IMG/VR virus record: IMGVR_UViG_3300007735_000608
Coordinates: 1 to 31,622 of that record
Source of the DNA: a virus
Reading direction: 5' to 3' (one strand)
DNA: 31,622 bases
How positions within the stretch are numbered: the stretch's first letter is position 1; every line of letters starts with the position of its first letter. The notes beneath the pieces were generated by a model that saw only the letters and a list, made by a program, of their open reading frames with translations, made no database searches and was not told the DNA's origin. Positions 1-31,622 of this stretch are shown here, in pieces. Both the position numbers and the translations under genes were made by a program.

Positions 1-21
1 GAAGCGCGGCAATCCCGGCTA
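1..21. repeat. Terminal direct repeat, left copy (assembly overlap)
   Basis: The first 21 bases are identical to the last 21 bases (31602-31622). Joining the copies gives a 31,601-bp circle and keeps the gene across the seam in frame. This is what a circular or circularly permuted genome looks like when assembled as a linear contig. The repeat length probably reflects the assembler rather than a physical end. Confidence 0.9.
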
Positions 22-4991: not shown

Positions 4992-5573
4992 GTGGCTCGT
5001 GTAGTGTATGGAGGAGGGGGCGTCACAGTGGCCGTATCCGGCACGCTGGAGCGTACCCTCCGCGCTGCCTACACAGCCGCCACCAAGGGCATCGCTACCG
5101 CGATCGAGGGCATCGTGGACGAGGTAGCCGAGGATGCCCGAGACGACTGGTACGATCAGGTTGACAAGCGCTCGGGCGACTCGCAGGAGTCGATCACCTC
5201 GGAGATGCGGATCACGACGGACAAGGTGACCGGCGTCGTGTACGCGACCGAGAAGAAGACGTACATGATCAAGCGCCCCGGGCCTCTGAGCGTCAAGTCC
5301 TCGAGCAGGCTCGCGAACCCTGCGGTCTACTGGGAGGTCCGTGACTACTACCGCAAGAACGGGCAGATGCCGACAGGCTTCACCTTCGCGCGCCTGGACG
5401 AGAACGGCGACCCAATCGGCGTCCGCAAGATCCGGCCAAATCCGAAGGCCAGCGACGGGAGGAACATGTGGCTCGAGAACGTCAAGAAGCCCGGTAAGAA
5501 GCGCATCAACCAGCAGATCAGCACCATCCGTAAGGCCACAAAGAAGGCCGTGAAGGAGGCCACTCGTGGCTGA
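4992..5573 (+). CDS. HK97 gp10-like / minor tail completion protein
   Basis: The product is 193 residues. GTG 4992 directly follows the frameshift product's stop, with GGAGG five bases upstream. Residues 10-60 form a helix (TLERTLRAAYTAATKGIATAIEGIVDEVAEDARDDW), then strands (ITSEMRITTDKVTGVVYA) and a basic helical C-terminus (KKRINQQISTIRKATKKAVKEA). An amphipathic helix ending in DARDDW followed by strands is reminiscent of HK97 gp10-like proteins, normally encoded around the tail terminator; here it lies just before the tape measure. The assignment is moderate and a minor tail protein remains possible. Confidence 0.55.
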   Translation: MARVVYGGGGVTVAVSGTLERTLRAAYTAATKGIATAIEGIVDEVAEDARDDWYDQVDKRSGDSQESITSEMRITTDKVTGVVYATEKKTYMIKRPGPLSVKSSSRLANPAVYWEVRDYYRKNGQMPTGFTFARLDENGDPIGVRKIRPNPKASDGRNMWLENVKKPGKKRINQQISTIRKATKKAVKEATRG

Positions 5574-18449: not shown

Positions 18450-18658
18450 TTCACATCTCCATACCCGGGCAACGGCTTGTCGATCTGACCGTGCCGGATG
18501 AGGCCGACAACGAACCACAAGAGCACGACGAAGGACCATACGACACCATGCGCCCACCCGGGCGGGTCGAACCGATCGAGCAACAGGTAGACGATCACCG
18601 TCGTCTGTATGGGGTAGTAGGTCGGCAGTGCCGAGCGTGGCAGTACATAGCGGGTCAT
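18446..18658 (-). CDS. Small two-TM membrane protein
   Basis: The product is 70 residues. ATG 18658 is preferred because it overlaps the upstream stop as ATGA. Two hydrophobic segments, IQTTVIVYLLL and GVVWSFVVLLWFVVGLI, are separated by DRFDPPGWAH. This hairpin topology suits an inner-membrane protein. It could influence host membrane or superinfection, but that is speculative. It is not next to the lysis genes. Confidence 0.6.
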   Translation of the reverse strand: MTRYVLPRSALPTYYPIQTTVIVYLLLDRFDPPGWAHGVVWSFVVLLWFVVGLIRHGQIDKPLPGYGDVK

Positions 18659-18993
18659 GGCGCAGCCTCCAGCGCCGCGACGAGAGCCTCCTCTTCGCTC
18701 TCGACCCATTGTCCGCGATGATGCGGGCTACAGTCAAACTGATACCCGTGCTCTCTGGTGATCTTGATGCTCACCTGTAGGGACGGAACAGCGTAAGCCT
18801 CCCGCACCATCGCCAGCACGCACCCGCGCGTGGCAGGGTCGCGCAGGTCAGGCACGTCCACGTCGTTTGACCAGCGCCAGAGCAGCGACTGATCCCACGT
18901 CCTGCCCTGCATGTCGAGCATGCCGCGCATCGGTCGAAAGTGCTTGCACGCGACGAGGCGCTTGCCGAGGGCCGTGGCTTCGGTGTCGGTCAT
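18655..18993 (-). CDS. Conserved phage early protein (DPATRGCVLAMVREA type)
   Basis: The product is 112 residues, starting at ATG 18993 overlapping the previous stop as ATGA. The pattern FRPMRGMLDM, then DLRDPATRGCVLAMVREAY and a closing EEEALVAALEAA, is one I have seen in uncharacterised proteins of diverse phages. No catalytic motif is obvious. It is probably a small alpha/beta protein of early function, co-translated with its neighbours. Confidence 0.65.
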   Translation of the reverse strand: MTDTEATALGKRLVACKHFRPMRGMLDMQGRTWDQSLLWRWSNDVDVPDLRDPATRGCVLAMVREAYAVPSLQVSIKITREHGYQFDCSPHHRGQWVESEEEALVAALEAAP

Positions 18994-19277
18994 GGCTGTT
19001 CGTTCCTCCGCAACTGCCCGAGCGTGACGATCTCTCCATACTCGGACACCGCATAGTCGCTGTCGAGCCCCGTCGCGTAGACGGTCGTGCGTCCGCCCGA
19101 TCTCACTGCAGCGTGGTCGTCGCCGGCGACCATGCGCGCATAATCCTCGTGGATCGCTCCGATGATCTGACCCGCAGCCGCGCGGATGATTACAGACGGT
19201 GCTTCGATGTTCACAGCCACAGGCGGCACACGTTCGAGCGTAAATCCGTCTCGGATCTTGTAGTACGTCGTGCTCAT
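18990..19277 (-). CDS. Early protein of unknown function (95 aa)
   Basis: The product is 95 residues, starting at ATG 19277 with GGAGGAG just upstream. A longer frame exists but would swallow the neighbour's start. The sequence (MSTTYYKIRDGFTLERVPPV; SVIIRAAAGQIIGAIHEDYA; RTTVYATGLDSDYAVSEYGE) suggests a small alpha/beta fold. No family is recognised. Its start lies inside the downstream copy of the 32-bp repeat described at 19275-19306. Confidence 0.6.
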   Translation of the reverse strand: MSTTYYKIRDGFTLERVPPVAVNIEAPSVIIRAAAGQIIGAIHEDYARMVAGDDHAAVRSGGRTTVYATGLDSDYAVSEYGEIVTLGQLRRNEQP

Positions 19278-19474
19278 CGCTCCTCCTCGCGGCGGTGATC
19301 GCCGCGTTGATGCTCCGGCACCCACTTCGGCGTCGGACACCACGCCCGGTGCGGGCGCGTAGTGCGAATGTGCGCTCCGCACGACGGGCATTGGTCGCAG
19401 CGGCACCCGCCGTTCGTCCGCATCCCGCCACGCTGGGTGGCATAGCGACACGAGTTGTCTCCACAGTCCGGCAT
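19274..19474 (-). CDS. Cysteine-rich putative zinc-finger protein in a repeat-flanked cassette
   Basis: The product is 66 residues, with GGAGGAG before ATG 19474. Cysteines at 4, 9, 24, 26, 29, 32 and 46, with the CDQCPSCG core, suggest one or two zinc sites. The end (HRREEER) matches the end of the upstream gene's product (HRREEE) because both are encoded in 32-bp direct repeats flanking this gene. It is probably nucleic-acid or protein binding. The gene looks like a removable cassette. Confidence 0.65.
   Translation of the reverse strand: MPDCGDNSCRYATQRGGMRTNGGCRCDQCPSCGAHIRTTRPHRAWCPTPKWVPEHQRGDHRREEER
19275..19306. repeat. 32-bp direct repeat, copy 1 (gene-junction repeat A)
   Basis: This matches 19472-19503 with two mismatches in 32 bases. 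On the minus strand it carries the codons for HRREE at a gene end, the GGAGGAG ribosome site and the next ATG. The offset between copies is 197 bp, so they bracket exactly one gene. Confidence 0.85.
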
Positions 19475-19503
19475 CACTCCTCCTCGCGGCGGTGCTCGCC
19501 GCG
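19472..19503. repeat. 32-bp direct repeat, copy 2 (gene-junction repeat A)
   Basis: This is the partner of 19275-19306. It lies at the junction of the 101-residue gene and the cysteine-rich gene. Both copies include stop/start signals in the same arrangement. Confidence 0.85.
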
Positions 19504-19779
19504 CTCGATCATTTCGGCCATCGGCCAAACGCGCGGTCGGAAGTCGATACTCGCATCCTGCTCGCGCAAGAATGCCACCACGGCGGCGCGCTCGCGCTTC
19601 GCGTCCTCGGCGTTCGCGTTCTCGGCGCGGGCGGCTTCCTCGACCATCAGCCGTAGGTCGTGGGCCTCCTCGCGTAGCCGCTCGATCTCCGCGACAAGAA
19701 CCTCTTCCATGTCGCGGGGCAACGGACGGGTCGGGTGCTCCACGCGCCATGCGCGGTAAGCGTCGAGGTCGATGCTCAT
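19474..19779 (-). CDS. Coiled-coil early protein (101 aa)
   Basis: The product is 101 residues, starting at ATG 19779 overlapping the upstream stop as ATGA. The N-terminus is MSIDLDAYRAWRVEHPTRPL. Residues about 25-70 form a coiled coil (EVLVAEIERLREEAHDLRLM), and the C-terminus is charged, ending HRREEE. It is probably a soluble dimer. The family is unknown. Its last codons fall within repeat copy 2. Confidence 0.65.
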   Translation of the reverse strand: MSIDLDAYRAWRVEHPTRPLPRDMEEVLVAEIERLREEAHDLRLMVEEAARAENANAEDAKRERAAVVAFLREQDASIDFRPRVWPMAEMIERGEHRREEE

Positions 19780-24209: not shown

Positions 24210-24252
24210 TACGAGCAGAGCGCATCACGTTCTTCCTCCTCGTGATGTCCGG

Positions 24253-24286
24253 TCGGAGCGGGTACCAGCCGCTCCGATCTTTTTTT
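24253..24286 (+). terminator. Intrinsic terminator
   Basis: TCGGAGCGG (24253-24261) pairs perfectly with CCGCTCCGA (24269-24277) around a 7-base loop, followed by TCTTTTTTT. It should end transcription of the early genes before the replication operon. The end of its T-tract forms part of the next promoter's -35. Confidence 0.9.
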
Positions 24287-24313
24287 GCCACCTCGTCATC
24301 CTCCTGCTATGTG
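24285..24313 (+). promoter_or_regulatory. Promoter for the regulator-primase operon
   Basis: TTGCCA (24285-24290), a 17-base spacer and an extended -10 TGC-TATGTG (24305-24313) form a good promoter: five of six -35 positions, TG extension and three of six -10 positions. It starts inside the terminator tail and overlaps the operator on its right. Confidence 0.55.
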
Positions 24314-24327
24314 TTACGTGTGACACA
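24310..24327. promoter_or_regulatory. Imperfect palindrome, candidate operator
   Basis: TGTGTTACGTGTGACACA has TGTGT and ACACA arms and 14 of 18 symmetric positions. It covers the -10 and the start region just before a ribbon-helix-helix gene, the usual position for autoregulation. Confidence 0.55.
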
Positions 24328-24337
24328 CAGGAGGCAT

Positions 24338-24538
24338 ATGGAAAAGCATCTGACGGTGCGCCTTGAGGCGCAGGAAGTGGAGCGGGCCGAGCGCCTGGCG
24401 GTGCAGAGCGGAACGACTCGCAGCGATGTCGTGCGCGCCGCGCTGCTGCGCGGCCTCGCCATGCTCGAGGAGCAGGTGACGGTAGACATTCACGCGGCGC
24501 TCGCAGCGCGGGCCATCGTGCTCGGAGGTGGCAAGTGA
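24338..24538 (+). CDS. Ribbon-helix-helix (CopG/Arc-type) regulator
   Basis: The product is 66 residues, starting at ATG 24338 after AGGAGG. KHLTVRLEAQEVERAERLAV, QSGTTRSDVVRAALLRGL is the classical pattern: a ribbon strand (HLTVRL), helix A and helix B with a SDVVR turn. It probably binds the palindrome upstream as a dimer and controls its own expression with the primase-helicase, whose start overlaps as GTGA. Confidence 0.75.
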   Translation: MEKHLTVRLEAQEVERAERLAVQSGTTRSDVVRAALLRGLAMLEEQVTVDIHAALAARAIVLGGGK

Positions 24539-26880
24539 ACGACTGGAACCCTGTGTTTCGCAACTCGGCCATCCGGTACGTCGAGAAGCGCAACTGGCAT
24601 GTGTTCGCGCTGCAGCCGCGGACGAAGCTGCCTGCCACTACGCACGGATGGAAGGATGCAGTCAATGACGCGGAGGCCGTGCGCGAGATGTGGGGCGCGC
24701 GTGAGTGCAACATCGGACTCGCGTGCGGTCCGATCAGTGGCGTGTTCGTGCTCGACGTGGACGCCACGCCGCCTAAGAGTGGAGGGCTGACAGGACCGGA
24801 GGCACTTGCCATCCTAGAGGAGCGCAATGGCGCGCTCCCGCCGACGCTGCGAGTCAGCACGGGCGGCGATGGATGGCACATCTACTTCCGCTGGCCGCAA
24901 TGGCGACCGCTCCGCAACCGAGCGCGGATCAAGATCGATGGTCAGCAGACAGGTCTCGATGTCCGAGCCGAGGGTGGGTACGTCGTGCTTCCTCCGAGCA
25001 TCCATCCGAGTGGCGGTGTGTACCGCTGGGACATGGAGCGCACCGAGCTCCTCGACGCGCCTGGTTGGTTGCTCGATCTACTCGACCCGCCGAAGATTGA
25101 AGCGCCGAAGGCTCTGCAGGCTACCGCGCCCGTCTCGGCCTCCGACACTGAGCACTACGGGCGCAAGGCATTGAGCAACGCAGTGGAGCGCATCCACGCA
25201 GCCGCCGAGGGCGATCGGCATGGTGCGATCTACCGAGAAGCAGCGGGCATGGGCGAGCTCGTGGCAGGTGGCGTCCTGCAGGCCGATGTCGTTGAGGCCG
25301 CGCTTGTCGCTGCAGGGCTGGCGATCGGAAAGGCCCGCGCCGAGGTCGAGCGCACTGTCCGAGACGGGATGAAGCAGGGTGCCACGCAGCCGCGCACGCC
25401 GCAGCCGAGGCCCGTACCCGGTACGGCTGTCGCGCCGAATGGCAACATCTACCGTCCATCGGATGCCGGCAATGCTGAGCGCCTCGTGGATCGTTTTGGC
25501 CCTGACGTGCGGTGGAGTGACGGCGTGCAGGGTGACGGCTGGCTCGTGTGGGACGGCACGCGCTGGGCGCCCGACAACATGCGCCAGCTCAACACCTATG
25601 CGTTGCACGTCGGACGGGACGTGATCGCGCATGCTGCAGCCGTGTCGCAGCAACTGCGAGACGTGCAGGCCCGAGCGGGTAGTCCTCCATCGCCTGCAGA
25701 GTCGGCACAGATCTCGGCGCTCCGCACGGAGGCCAAGCTCTGGGAGCGCTGGGCGCGTGACTCCGAGATGGTTGGACACGTCAAGGCCATGCAGACGCTG
25801 GCGCAGGGGCATGTGGCGATTGATCAGGAGCGCCTCGACGCCGATGCCTGGGCGCTGAACACTCCGAGCGGTGTCGTGCGTTTGCTGACGGGTGGCCTCG
25901 AGCCGCATGACCGAGACGCGCTGCACACGAAGATTACGGGCGCTTCGCCCGAGGGTGACTGTCCGATATGGATCGCCTTCCTGACGCGGATCATGGGCGG
26001 CGATGCCGAGATGGTCGCGTTCCTGCAGCGCGTCGTCGGGTACTGCCTGACAGGCTCGACCCGCGAACAGTGCATCTTCATCCTGTACGGCAATGGGTCG
26101 AACGGAAAGAGCACCTTCCTCGACACGATCCGCTCGGTGCTGGGTGACTACGTGAGGCACGCGCGGGCCGAGACGTTCATGAAGGACAACCGTGGCGGCG
26201 GGATCCCGAATGACGTGGCAGCGCTTCGCGGCGCGCGGGTCGTGACCGCCTCGGAGCCGTCACAGGGCGAGCGCCTGGACGAGTCGCTCGTGAAGGAGAT
26301 GACGGGCGACAGCGCCATGACGGCGCGGTTCATGCGCGGCGAGTTCTTCACGTTCCAACCGCAGTTCAAGGTGCTGCTCGCGACAAACCATCGCCCCGTC
26401 ATCCGTGGCACGGATCACGGGATCTGGCGCCGCATCCGGCTGGTCCCGTTCACTGAGAAGATCTCGGACGAGGAGAAGGATCGGGAGCTCGGCGCCAAGC
26501 TCGCGCGTGAGGCGAGCGGGATCCTGCGCTGGGCCGTCGAGGGCTGTCTCGCGTGGCAGCGCGAAGGATTGAACCCGCCTGAGGCCGTGCTCATGGCGAC
26601 GGACGCCTACCGTGCAGACATGGATCTGCTTGGCCATTTCCTTGCCGAGCGCTGCGTCGTGGGCGCACAGACGGTCAAGAACACGCCGCTCTACAAGGCG
26701 TTCTACGACTGGTGTACTGACAACGGCGAGAAGCCCCGCTCTCATAAGTGGATGTCCGAGGCGCTTCAGGATCGAGGCTTCAAGCAGAAGGGCGGCCACA
26801 AGGACGGCCGCACCTGGATCGGCCTCGGCCTGATCGAGGATCAGCTGCCGCAGATCCGTGAGGTTCCGAAGCACTGGTAG
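24535..26880 (+). CDS. Primase/polymerase-helicase fusion (AEP prim-pol plus D5/SF3 helicase)
   Basis: The product is 781 residues. Residues about 5-190 are an archaeo-eukaryotic primase domain: catalytic D74 and D76 (VLDVDA), STGGDGWHIYF with H115, then GLDVRAEGGYVVLPPSIHP. Residues about 430-730 are a D5/SF3 helicase: D5-N-like segment, Walker A GNGSNGKST at 519-527, then VTASEPSQGERLDE and LLATNHRPVIRG. A phage P4 alpha-like fusion can prime and open an origin. No phage DNA polymerase was found, so elongation likely relies on the host. A likely origin follows. Confidence 0.9.
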   Translation: MNDWNPVFRNSAIRYVEKRNWHVFALQPRTKLPATTHGWKDAVNDAEAVREMWGARECNIGLACGPISGVFVLDVDATPPKSGGLTGPEALAILEERNGALPPTLRVSTGGDGWHIYFRWPQWRPLRNRARIKIDGQQTGLDVRAEGGYVVLPPSIHPSGGVYRWDMERTELLDAPGWLLDLLDPPKIEAPKALQATAPVSASDTEHYGRKALSNAVERIHAAAEGDRHGAIYREAAGMGELVAGGVLQADVVEAALVAAGLAIGKARAEVERTVRDGMKQGATQPRTPQPRPVPGTAVAPNGNIYRPSDAGNAERLVDRFGPDVRWSDGVQGDGWLVWDGTRWAPDNMRQLNTYALHVGRDVIAHAAAVSQQLRDVQARAGSPPSPAESAQISALRTEAKLWERWARDSEMVGHVKAMQTLAQGHVAIDQERLDADAWALNTPSGVVRLLTGGLEPHDRDALHTKITGASPEGDCPIWIAFLTRIMGGDAEMVAFLQRVVGYCLTGSTREQCIFILYGNGSNGKSTFLDTIRSVLGDYVRHARAETFMKDNRGGGIPNDVAALRGARVVTASEPSQGERLDESLVKEMTGDSAMTARFMRGEFFTFQPQFKVLLATNHRPVIRGTDHGIWRRIRLVPFTEKISDEEKDRELGAKLAREASGILRWAVEGCLAWQREGLNPPEAVLMATDAYRADMDLLGHFLAERCVVGAQTVKNTPLYKAFYDWCTDNGEKPRSHKWMSEALQDRGFKQKGGHKDGRTWIGLGLIEDQLPQIREVPKHW

Positions 26881-26932
26881 GGGACGGATCGAGGGGACAG
26901 ATCATACCCATCTAAAACATAGGCAGTAGGCT

Positions 26933-26951
26933 CAAGGGGACAGGTGGACAG
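26933..26951 (+). repeat. Left arm of the 19-bp inverted repeat
   Basis: CAAGGGGACAGGTGGACAG is the exact reverse complement of 27036-27054. The arms enclose 84 bases that include the DnaA-box-like sequence. Confidence 0.9.
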
Positions 26952-26991
26952 GTTGGTGCAGACATCATCTGCTCCTATACACGTAAGGCAG

Positions 26992-27000
26992 TTATCCATA
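26992..27000 (+). promoter_or_regulatory. DnaA-box-like sequence
   Basis: TTATCCATA matches the DnaA box consensus TTATNCACA at all but one position. It lies between the arms of the inverted repeat. Confidence 0.5.
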
Positions 27001-27035
27001 GGCCTCGTATAGAAATCAATCAACCCTGCTTTGAT

Positions 27036-27054
27036 CTGTCCACCTGTCCCCTTG
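27036..27054 (-). repeat. Right arm of the 19-bp inverted repeat
   Basis: CTGTCCACCTGTCCCCTTG is the perfect reverse complement of 26933-26951. Related ACCTGTCCCCC words follow at 27085-27095 and 27108-27118. Confidence 0.9.
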
Positions 27055-27150
27055 CAGTATTGATGCGGGTTGTAGAAGGGCGACACCTGTCCCCCGTCCC
27101 GTCCCCAACCTGTCCCCCGACAACAGACGACAACATCAGAGGAGGTAGAG

Positions 27151-27444: not shown

Positions 27445-27572
27445 GAACAGGAAGGGTCGTGTATACCGACGGACCCCCCCGGGACCGCGATAGCCCCTCG
27501 ACCCACGCCCCCCACGCGCTTTATTGAATGGTCCCGTTCAAGGTCGATAGACTACGCTGAAGGAGCAAGAAC
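27445..27572. other. Intergenic gap with C-tract and inverted repeat
   Basis: The 128-base gap between the zinc protein and the terminase block has a 7-C tract at 27474-27480 and several C-rich words. Its right end carries TTGAATG/CGTTCAA (27524-27541) and a possible promoter. No ORF is apparent. Confidence 0.5.
27524..27553 (+). promoter_or_regulatory. Promoter and inverted repeat before the packaging genes
   Basis: TTGAAT (27524-27529), 18 bases, TAGACT (27548-27553) match four of six positions each. TTGAATG and CGTTCAA (27535-27541) form a 7-bp inverted repeat with one mismatch that covers the -35 region. A start near 27560 would precede the ATG at 27573. Confidence 0.4.
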
Positions 27573-27950
27573 ATGCCGATCCGAGGCAAACCGCCGAAGA
27601 AGAAGCCGATGGTGGCGATGACGCCGGAAGAAGCGACGACAGCGCCCTATGTGGACTACCTTCGCGCGAAGCTGATCCAGCTCGAGCAGGCGACGATCGA
27701 TGCGAACCGGGCCGGCTCCTGGCAAGCCATGTTCTCGGGCGCACAGAAGGCGATGGAATGTCGTCGCGAACTGGATGCAGAGATCGCGAAGGCGTCCTCG
27801 CCAGACTCGAGCATGAGCGACGAGCAGCTGCTCGGGATCATCGTGGGCGCTGTCGCCTCGCTGCCACCGCAGCACCTCGAGCGCCTCGAGGACGCGATCG
27901 AGATGCGCCGCACGGGTCGCGTCGTGCGCCTCGAGAGGACGACCGCATGA
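27573..27950 (+). CDS. Possible small terminase subunit
   Basis: The product is 125 residues, with GAAGGAGCAA before ATG 27573. A basic N-terminus (MPIRGKPPKKKP) is followed by long helices (PYVDYLRAKLIQLEQATIDA; SWQAMFSGAQKAMECRRELD) and an acidic, helical C-terminus ending in LERTTA. Basic start plus helical oligomerisation region, two genes before the large terminase, suits a small terminase that recognises the packaging site. No helix-turn-helix is obvious, so the assignment is moderate. Confidence 0.5.
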   Translation: MPIRGKPPKKKPMVAMTPEEATTAPYVDYLRAKLIQLEQATIDANRAGSWQAMFSGAQKAMECRRELDAEIAKASSPDSSMSDEQLLGIIVGAVASLPPQHLERLEDAIEMRRTGRVVRLERTTA

Positions 27951-31306: not shown

Positions 31307-31622
31307 TGCCGTTCGTCTCGGAAGCGCAGCGGCGGTATCTGCGGCTGAATGAGCCTGCGGTCTACCGCGAGTTCAAGCGCGCGGAAGAGCGTGGCGATCT
31401 CGACCTGCGTCCGCCAGCGACCGTAGCCGCCGCCGCAAAGCGCGGCCTCGAGCTGCGTGCGGAGTTCAACCGAGGCGGCACGGCGGTCGGTGTCGCGCGG
31501 GCGCGCGACCTGAGCAACCGTCGAGAGCTGAGCATCGAGACGATCAAGCGGATGAACGCCTACTTCACTCGCCATGAGATCGACCTCGAGGCGCCGGCCG
31601 CGAAGCGCGGCAATCCCGGCTA
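31306..31622 (+). CDS. AWLLWGGD-motif phage protein, N-terminal part (runs off window end)
   Basis: GTG 31306 overlaps the portal stop by one base. The frame covers 105 complete codons, then continues at base 1 when the circle is closed, giving 147 residues in total. The N-terminus (VPFVSEAQRRYLRLNEPAVY) is helical. Residues about 60-90 (GTAVGVARARDLSNRRELSI; ETIKRMNAYFTRHE) match the usual partner of the C-terminal AWLLWGGD motif in other phages. The role is unknown; it is encoded between portal and scaffold. Confidence 0.85.
   Translation, partial: MPFVSEAQRRYLRLNEPAVYREFKRAEERGDLDLRPPATVAAAAKRGLELRAEFNRGGTAVGVARARDLSNRRELSIETIKRMNAYFTRHEIDLEAPAAKRGNPG
31602..31622. repeat. Terminal direct repeat, right copy (assembly overlap)
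   Basis: This is identical to bases 1-21. It lies inside the AWLLWGGD-motif gene, and the frame is preserved across the join. Confidence 0.9.

What the first reader, a model, noticed from the sequence alone, without database searches (positions are those of the whole stretch)
26881..27150. Iteron- and DnaA-box-containing origin with a 19-bp inverted repeat
GGGGACAGGT-type words occur in both orientations around an 84-base spacer with TTATCCATA, right behind a P4-like primase-helicase. This resembles plasmid or satellite origins more than typical siphovirus ones. The opposed iterons could allow bidirectional loading or a large cruciform.
Basis: partly seen in the sequence, partly recalled or inferred. 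Interest (0 to 1): 0.7.

Follow-up and report, generated by a model that had tools for sequence, protein, structure and literature searches.

The report
Satellite-type replication origin in a phage
Just after its primase-helicase gene this phage carries a mirror-symmetric set of short repeats around its most AT-rich stretch, almost certainly its DNA replication start site; the same layout, known from phage satellites, turns out to be common in ordinary phages with this enzyme.

Summary
Between the Prim-Pol/D5 primase-helicase gene (24535-26880) and the next ORF lie nine G(G/T)GGAC(A/G)G words, four forward on the left and five reversed on the right. They form a near-exact dyad with 19-bp arms (26933-26951 / 27036-27054) and an 84-bp spacer that is the AT-richest stretch of the genome. 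Shuffles never reach this. The 'DnaA box' is at chance level.

Best reading: the phage's own origin, read by the enzyme's C-terminal winged helix (modelled here; resembles the phage P4 alpha origin-binding domain). Opposed iterons sit directly 3' of the primase gene in most of 88 related phage loci, with a different word per family. In L112/L113, phages with a 79-80% identical terminase but a swapped replication module, these words are gone and another opposed set follows the new helicase gene. Three relatives' contigs begin at the base matching 27486, marking the genome end elsewhere, so the repeats are not the packaging site.

The layout is that of P4 crr and SaPI/PICI origins: a new member of a known kind. 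New points: it is common in tailed phages, against a published claim of uniqueness to PICIs; and iteron words co-vary with the winged-helix domain. No binding or replication was tested.

The parts
24242..24538 (+). Ribbon-helix-helix (CopG/Arc-like) ORF directly upstream of the primase, 4-bp overlap; same gene order as pRN1 (orf56-orf904-origin)
   Evidence: Pfam RHH_1 1e-4, phrog_3431 Arc-like; pRN1 annotation
24535..26880 (+). Primase-helicase (781 aa): Prim-Pol + D5_N + SF3-type ATPase (DUF5906) + C-terminal winged helix; proposed initiator
   Evidence: Pfam/PHROG; alignment with phage primases
26428..26877 (+). C-terminal 150 aa holding the winged-helix domain, proposed iteron reader
   Evidence: AlphaFold2 pLDDT 85; Foldseek: RFX DBD, ASFV PrimPol C-term, Cdc6/Orc1, P4 alpha OBD 1ka8 prob 0.85
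26880..26887 (+). iteron L1 GGGGACGG (first base is the last base of the primase stop codon)
26893..26900 (+). iteron L2 GGGGACAG, mirrored by 27087-27094
26936..26943 (+). iteron L3 GGGGACAG, mirrored by 27044-27051
26944..26951 (+). iteron L4 GTGGACAG, tandem with L3 (8-bp period), mirrored by 27036-27043
26933..26951 (+). left arm of the 19-bp perfect inverted repeat
26952..27035 (.). 84-bp spacer, part of the AT-richest stretch of the record; contains a 10-nt alternating purine-pyrimidine run; proposed unwinding element
27036..27054 (-). right arm of the 19-bp inverted repeat (iterons R4 27036-27043 and R3 27044-27051)
27087..27094 (-). iteron R2 GGGGACAG
27099..27106 (-). iteron R1 GGGGACGG (mirror of L1, shifted 1 bp)
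27110..27117 (-). extra outer iteron GGGGACAG without left counterpart

Best explanation
The region 26880-27117 is the replication origin of this phage, of the P4-crr / SaPI-PICI type. Proposed mechanism: the primase-helicase made from the gene just upstream binds the 8-bp iterons through its C-terminal winged helix. Two mirror-image iteron clusters position two enzyme rings facing each other across the AT-rich 84-bp spacer. The spacer melts, the SF3 helicases unwind outward, and the Prim-Pol domain makes primers, giving self-loaded, probably bidirectional initiation. Shown here: the sequence layout, its significance, its linkage to the primase across phages, its exchange with the replication module, and a winged-helix model. 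Inferred: protein binding, ring loading, melting and direction.
For: Layout and significance. Downstream 350 bp enriched in short repeats in 66 of 88 primase loci at p<=0.01, and ahead of every control segment of its locus in 57; inverted-repeat score >=12 in 61 of 89 against 0.7% of 2457 control segments. Tandem iterons, spacer, reversed tandem iterons is the recurrent pattern. P4 crr in the same position with GGTGAACA. GenBank rep_origin at the same place in phiadh and A2. Closest primase relative found, L108 (46-49%), has AGGACACAT iterons, sharing GGACA. Same backbone with swapped helicase has swapped iterons. Winged-helix model. Iteron similarity follows the winged helix and not the ATPase part in two primase clusters. 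Literature: a PICI pri-ori construct maintained a plasmid and needed both parts (PMC6092414); SaPI Rep reads the downstream iterons with its C-terminal domain, apparently as two hexamers (PMC7581432).
Against: No replication, binding or copy-number data for this phage. GC skew shows no sign switch here. A minority of loci (phiC31, TG1, Kurnik, L048, L053 and others) lack the signal. The winged-helix/iteron covariation could partly reflect physical linkage, since the iterons adjoin the 3' end of the gene. Foldseek matches are weak by E-value (best 0.0033).
Confidence: 0.88

Rival explanations
1. Stem-loop (cruciform) origin: the 19-bp arms extrude a hairpin with an 84-nt loop, and the initiator recognises the structure rather than the repeated words, as proposed for plasmid pRN1.
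For: Single-strand folding is far better than shuffles (z -7.0). The arms match each other better than tandem units do here (19 vs 11) and in 12 of 20 primase clusters. pRN1's origin needs both arms and loop (PMC4234260); 3-bp loop deletions kill it (PMC3869888).
Against: Outer iterons at 26880, 26893, 27087, 27099 and 27110 lie outside the hairpin. Arms are internally tandem with 8-12 bp period in many loci, and pRN1 and pHEN7 arms are too, by eye. 8 of 20 clusters have stronger direct than inverted repeats, or a tie. [quoted passage not shown]
Confidence: 0.12
2. Packaging (cos/pac) recognition site beside the terminase genes.
For: Within about 1.1 kb of the terminase large subunit gene; near the inferred genome end.
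Against: L112 and L113 keep terminase and the 27451-27933 block but lose these words along with the primase. Three relatives' contigs begin at the base matching 27486, about 370 bp away. Same layout beside primases in P4, phiadh and A2, the last two with GenBank rep_origin there.
Confidence: 0.03
3. Operator array for a regulator: the RHH protein (24242) or the CxxC protein (27151).
For: RHH proteins bind short repeats; both genes are adjacent.
Against: Array is 3' of the operon with no promoter-like site; the recurrent partner across phages is the primase 3' end, with varying neighbours; iteron words follow the primase's own winged helix.
Confidence: 0.05

Closest known systems
PICI/SaPI replication origins (pri-rep-ori)
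   Same: Directly 3' of the initiator gene; [quoted passage not shown] read by the initiator's C-terminal domain (PMC6092414, PMC7581432)
   Different: Here in a phage with its own terminase, head and endolysin genes and a fused Prim-Pol; iteron word differs; the PICI paper says no other known bacterial replicon has this organisation
Phage P4 ori/crr with alpha protein
   Same: crr directly 3' of alpha; 8-bp type 1 repeats GGTGAACA in both orientations, one base from GGTGGACA here; fold-level match to the alpha origin-binding domain
   Different: P4 needs a separate ori about 4.5 kb away; crr is a 120-bp direct duplication; according to PMC4234260 alpha's primase is Toprim-type, not Prim-Pol
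Origins of phages phiadh and A2 (GenBank rep_origin)
   Same: Same place and layout: opposed iterons around an AT-rich spacer
   Different: Different words (GTGTAGGGTT, ACGGGAGGAT); AT-rich hosts
Archaeal plasmid pRN1 origin
   Same: Same gene order RHH - Prim-Pol/helicase - origin; 21-bp arms and 58-nt loop against 19 and 84; arms contain tandem TGTCCA
   Different: Described as stem-loop without iterons, possibly rolling circle (PMC4234260, PMC3869888); arm polarity reversed

Membership tests
P4/SaPI/PICI-type origin | Located immediately 3' of the initiator (primase-helicase) gene | tested here: met
   First word begins on the last base of the stop codon
[quoted passage not shown]
P4/SaPI/PICI-type origin | Initiator is an SF3/D5-type helicase with C-terminal dsDNA-binding domain | tested here: met
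   Domains; winged-helix model (binding itself not tested)
P4/SaPI/PICI-type origin | Initiator binds the iterons specifically | not testable with these tools
   Indirect only: covariation, module swap
P4/SaPI/PICI-type origin | Initiator gene plus region sustains replication of a plasmid | not testable with these tools
   Shown for a PICI in PMC6092414
PICI (the element itself) | Satellite without its own head/terminase set, dependent on a helper | tested here: not met
   Record has terminase large subunit, major head protein and endolysin matches
DnaA-dependent (oriC-like) origin | Cluster of DnaA boxes beyond chance | tested here: not met
   One 1-mismatch box, 1.28 expected; 0.36 vs 0.20 per kb across relatives
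pRN1-type stem-loop origin | Long hairpin 3' of a Prim-Pol/helicase gene | tested here: met
   19-bp stem, 84-nt loop; fold z -7.0
pRN1-type stem-loop origin | No iteron structure | tested here: not met
   Nine iterons, five of them outside the hairpin
cos/pac site | Moves with the terminase genes / at the genome end | tested here: not met

The most novel reading that the evidence does not exclude
Prim-Pol/D5 and VapE-type primase-helicases of tailed phages, satellites and archaeal pRN plasmids share one origin design: mirrored tandem winged-helix sites around a 55-120 bp melting spacer directly 3' of the gene. The word is set by the recognition helix and wing of the enzyme's own C-terminal domain, so origins could be predicted from sequence, and the pRN1 'stem-loop' is really such an iteron dyad. 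In GC-rich phages the spacer often holds alternating purine-pyrimidine (CG/CA) runs in place of an AT tract.
Probability: 0.4. Interest if true: 0.65.

Novelty: new member of a known kind. Interest (0 to 1): 0.45.

Why it matters
It gives a concrete, testable origin for an uncultured phage. It also shows that the origin design said to be unique to PICIs (PMC6092414) is common in tailed phages with the same kind of enzyme. The same-backbone swap (window versus L112/L113) and the iteron/winged-helix covariation offer a route to a recognition code and to predicting phage origins from sequence.

Tried and rejected
Exact 16-mer scan of viral contigs gave only scattered hits without a primase, so the word itself is not widely shared. 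Primase scan of viral contigs with the single protein found nothing; an alignment query worked. DnaA-box idea rejected. Packaging-site idea rejected. Terminator/promoter scan: nothing inside the region. Rfam: only a sub-threshold snoRNA match. GC skew uninformative. Universal iteron polarity: only 13 of 17 clusters G-rich on the left by similarity to GGTGAACA, and pRN1 and L112 are opposite by eye, so not claimed. Covariation across distant primases (ATPase part <60% identical): none; seen only within clusters. pDL10 arms are not obviously tandem.

Full report
WHAT IS THERE. The intergenic stretch 26881-27150 follows a 781-aa Prim-Pol/D5 primase-helicase (Pfam Prim-Pol 2e-40, D5_N 2e-25, DUF5906, weak Pox_D5; PHROG DNA primase). 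It contains nine words G(G/T)GGAC(A/G)G: forward at 26880, 26893, 26936, 26944; reversed at 27036, 27044, 27087, 27099, 27110. Three of the four left words are mirrored to the base about a centre at 26993.5, the fourth with a 1-bp slip. The inner pairs make the 19-bp perfect inverted repeat with an 84-bp spacer. No shuffle of the record gives an arm above 16 or more than two such words in 270 bp. The spacer region is the AT-richest 100 bp of the record, 54%. The TTATCCATA 'DnaA box' is at chance.

THE GENOME. The record is a phage: terminase large subunit, major head protein, endolysin and primase are recognisable. Its ends overlap by 21 bp, and relatives run across the junction, so it closes to a circle of about 31.6 kb. 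Three relatives (L114, L115, L117) have contigs that begin at the base matching window 27486, which I read as the physical genome end; the origin would then lie about 0.5 kb from the right end of the linear molecule.

RELATIVES. Among 88 D5-type primase loci (80 viral contigs, known phages, the window; a few dropped for short flanks) the 350 bp after the primase stop shows excess short repeats at p<=0.01 in 66, and outranks every other segment of its locus in 57. An ungapped inverted-repeat score of 12 or more occurs in 61 of 89 (P4 included) against 0.7% of 2457 control segments. Many loci are related: at 60% identity there are 29 primase clusters, of which 17 contain such a locus. The pattern is tandem words, a spacer of roughly 50-150 bp, reversed tandem words, with a family-specific word: CTGACGG, GTTACT, GTGAACG, GGGTTAC, GTGTAGGGTT and others. 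phiadh and A2 records annotate rep_origin exactly here. P4's crr lies in the same place, with GGTGAACA. The closest primase relative found, in a Gemmatimonadetes MAG (L108), has AGGACACAT repeats in both orientations. A minority, including phiC31, TG1 and Kurnik, lack it.

A NATURAL SWAP. L112 and L113 share the terminase (79-80% identity) and the adjoining block 27451-27933 with the window, but carry a separate Prim-Pol gene and a VapE-like helicase. GGGGACAG is absent. Instead TGCCATACC/TGCCACACC words in opposed tandem sets follow the new helicase gene (L112 4773-4944). The repeats therefore travel with the replication enzyme and not with packaging.

THE READER DOMAIN. The C-terminal 150 residues model as a winged helix (pLDDT 85). 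PDB fold matches include RFX DNA-binding domain, ASFV PrimPol C-terminus, Cdc6/Orc1 and the P4 alpha origin-binding domain (probability 0.85, but E 0.43). Within two primase clusters iteron similarity tracks this domain (partial rho 0.49, 0 of 2000 permutations; 0.67, 2 of 2000) and not the ATPase part (-0.08, -0.27). Caveat: the domain's codons adjoin the iterons, so joint inheritance could give part of this. Across distant primases no such signal is seen.

MECHANISM AND LITERATURE. SaPI Rep helicases recognise, with their C-terminal domain, an origin of iterons directly downstream of their gene and appear to bind as two hexamers; the SCC helicase Cch2 binds its direct repeats through its C-terminal domain, and its inverted repeats are dispensable for binding (PMC7581432). 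[quoted passage not shown] The survey here contradicts that last point, on sequence grounds. For pRN1 the 3' region is essential and was called a stem-loop without iterons (PMC4234260, PMC3869888); its arms contain tandem TGTCCA with 9-bp period, and pHEN7's are similar, while pDL10's are not obviously so.

VERDICT. A replication origin of the P4/SaPI/PICI type, read by the phage's own primase-helicase: confidence 0.88 for origin, lower for the detailed ring-loading and direction. A cruciform contribution is not excluded (fold z -7.0; arms more alike than tandem units in 12 of 20 clusters).

Noticed in passing
window 1-21 and 31602-31622: 21-bp terminal direct repeat and relatives spanning the junction: the record is probably a complete circularly closed assembly although classed linear.
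   Followed up: yes
window 27451-27500: Conserved non-coding block GTGTATACCGA..GG.CCCCCCC upstream of the ORF at 27573; three relatives' contigs (L114, L115, L117) begin at the base matching 27486: candidate cos-like genome end.
   Followed up: partly
L112 2680-4944; L113 3090-5348: Replication module exchanged for separate Prim-Pol plus VapE-like helicase with its own opposed iterons TGCCATACC/TGCCACACC.
   Followed up: yes
spacers in relatives, e.g. L012, L069, L073, L094, L095: Origin spacers of many GC-rich phages hold alternating purine-pyrimidine runs of 18-28 nt (CGCGCG/CACGTA), longer than anything elsewhere in the locus; AT-rich phages have TATATA. Possible melting or Z-DNA element.
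   Followed up: partly
L103 5084-5104 / 5163-5183 (pRN1); L104 (pHEN7): Arms of the published 'stem-loop' origin consist of tandem words (TGTCCA x2; GTCACCACT/GTCACAACT), 9-bp period.
   Followed up: partly
window 18653-19526 vs L112 1015-2471: A stretch of the window matches several separate places in L112 on the opposite strand, as if a repeated and inverted gene family lies in the early region.
   Followed up: no
L112 5561-6004: Mom-like DNA modification gene next to the terminase gene in a relative.
   Followed up: no
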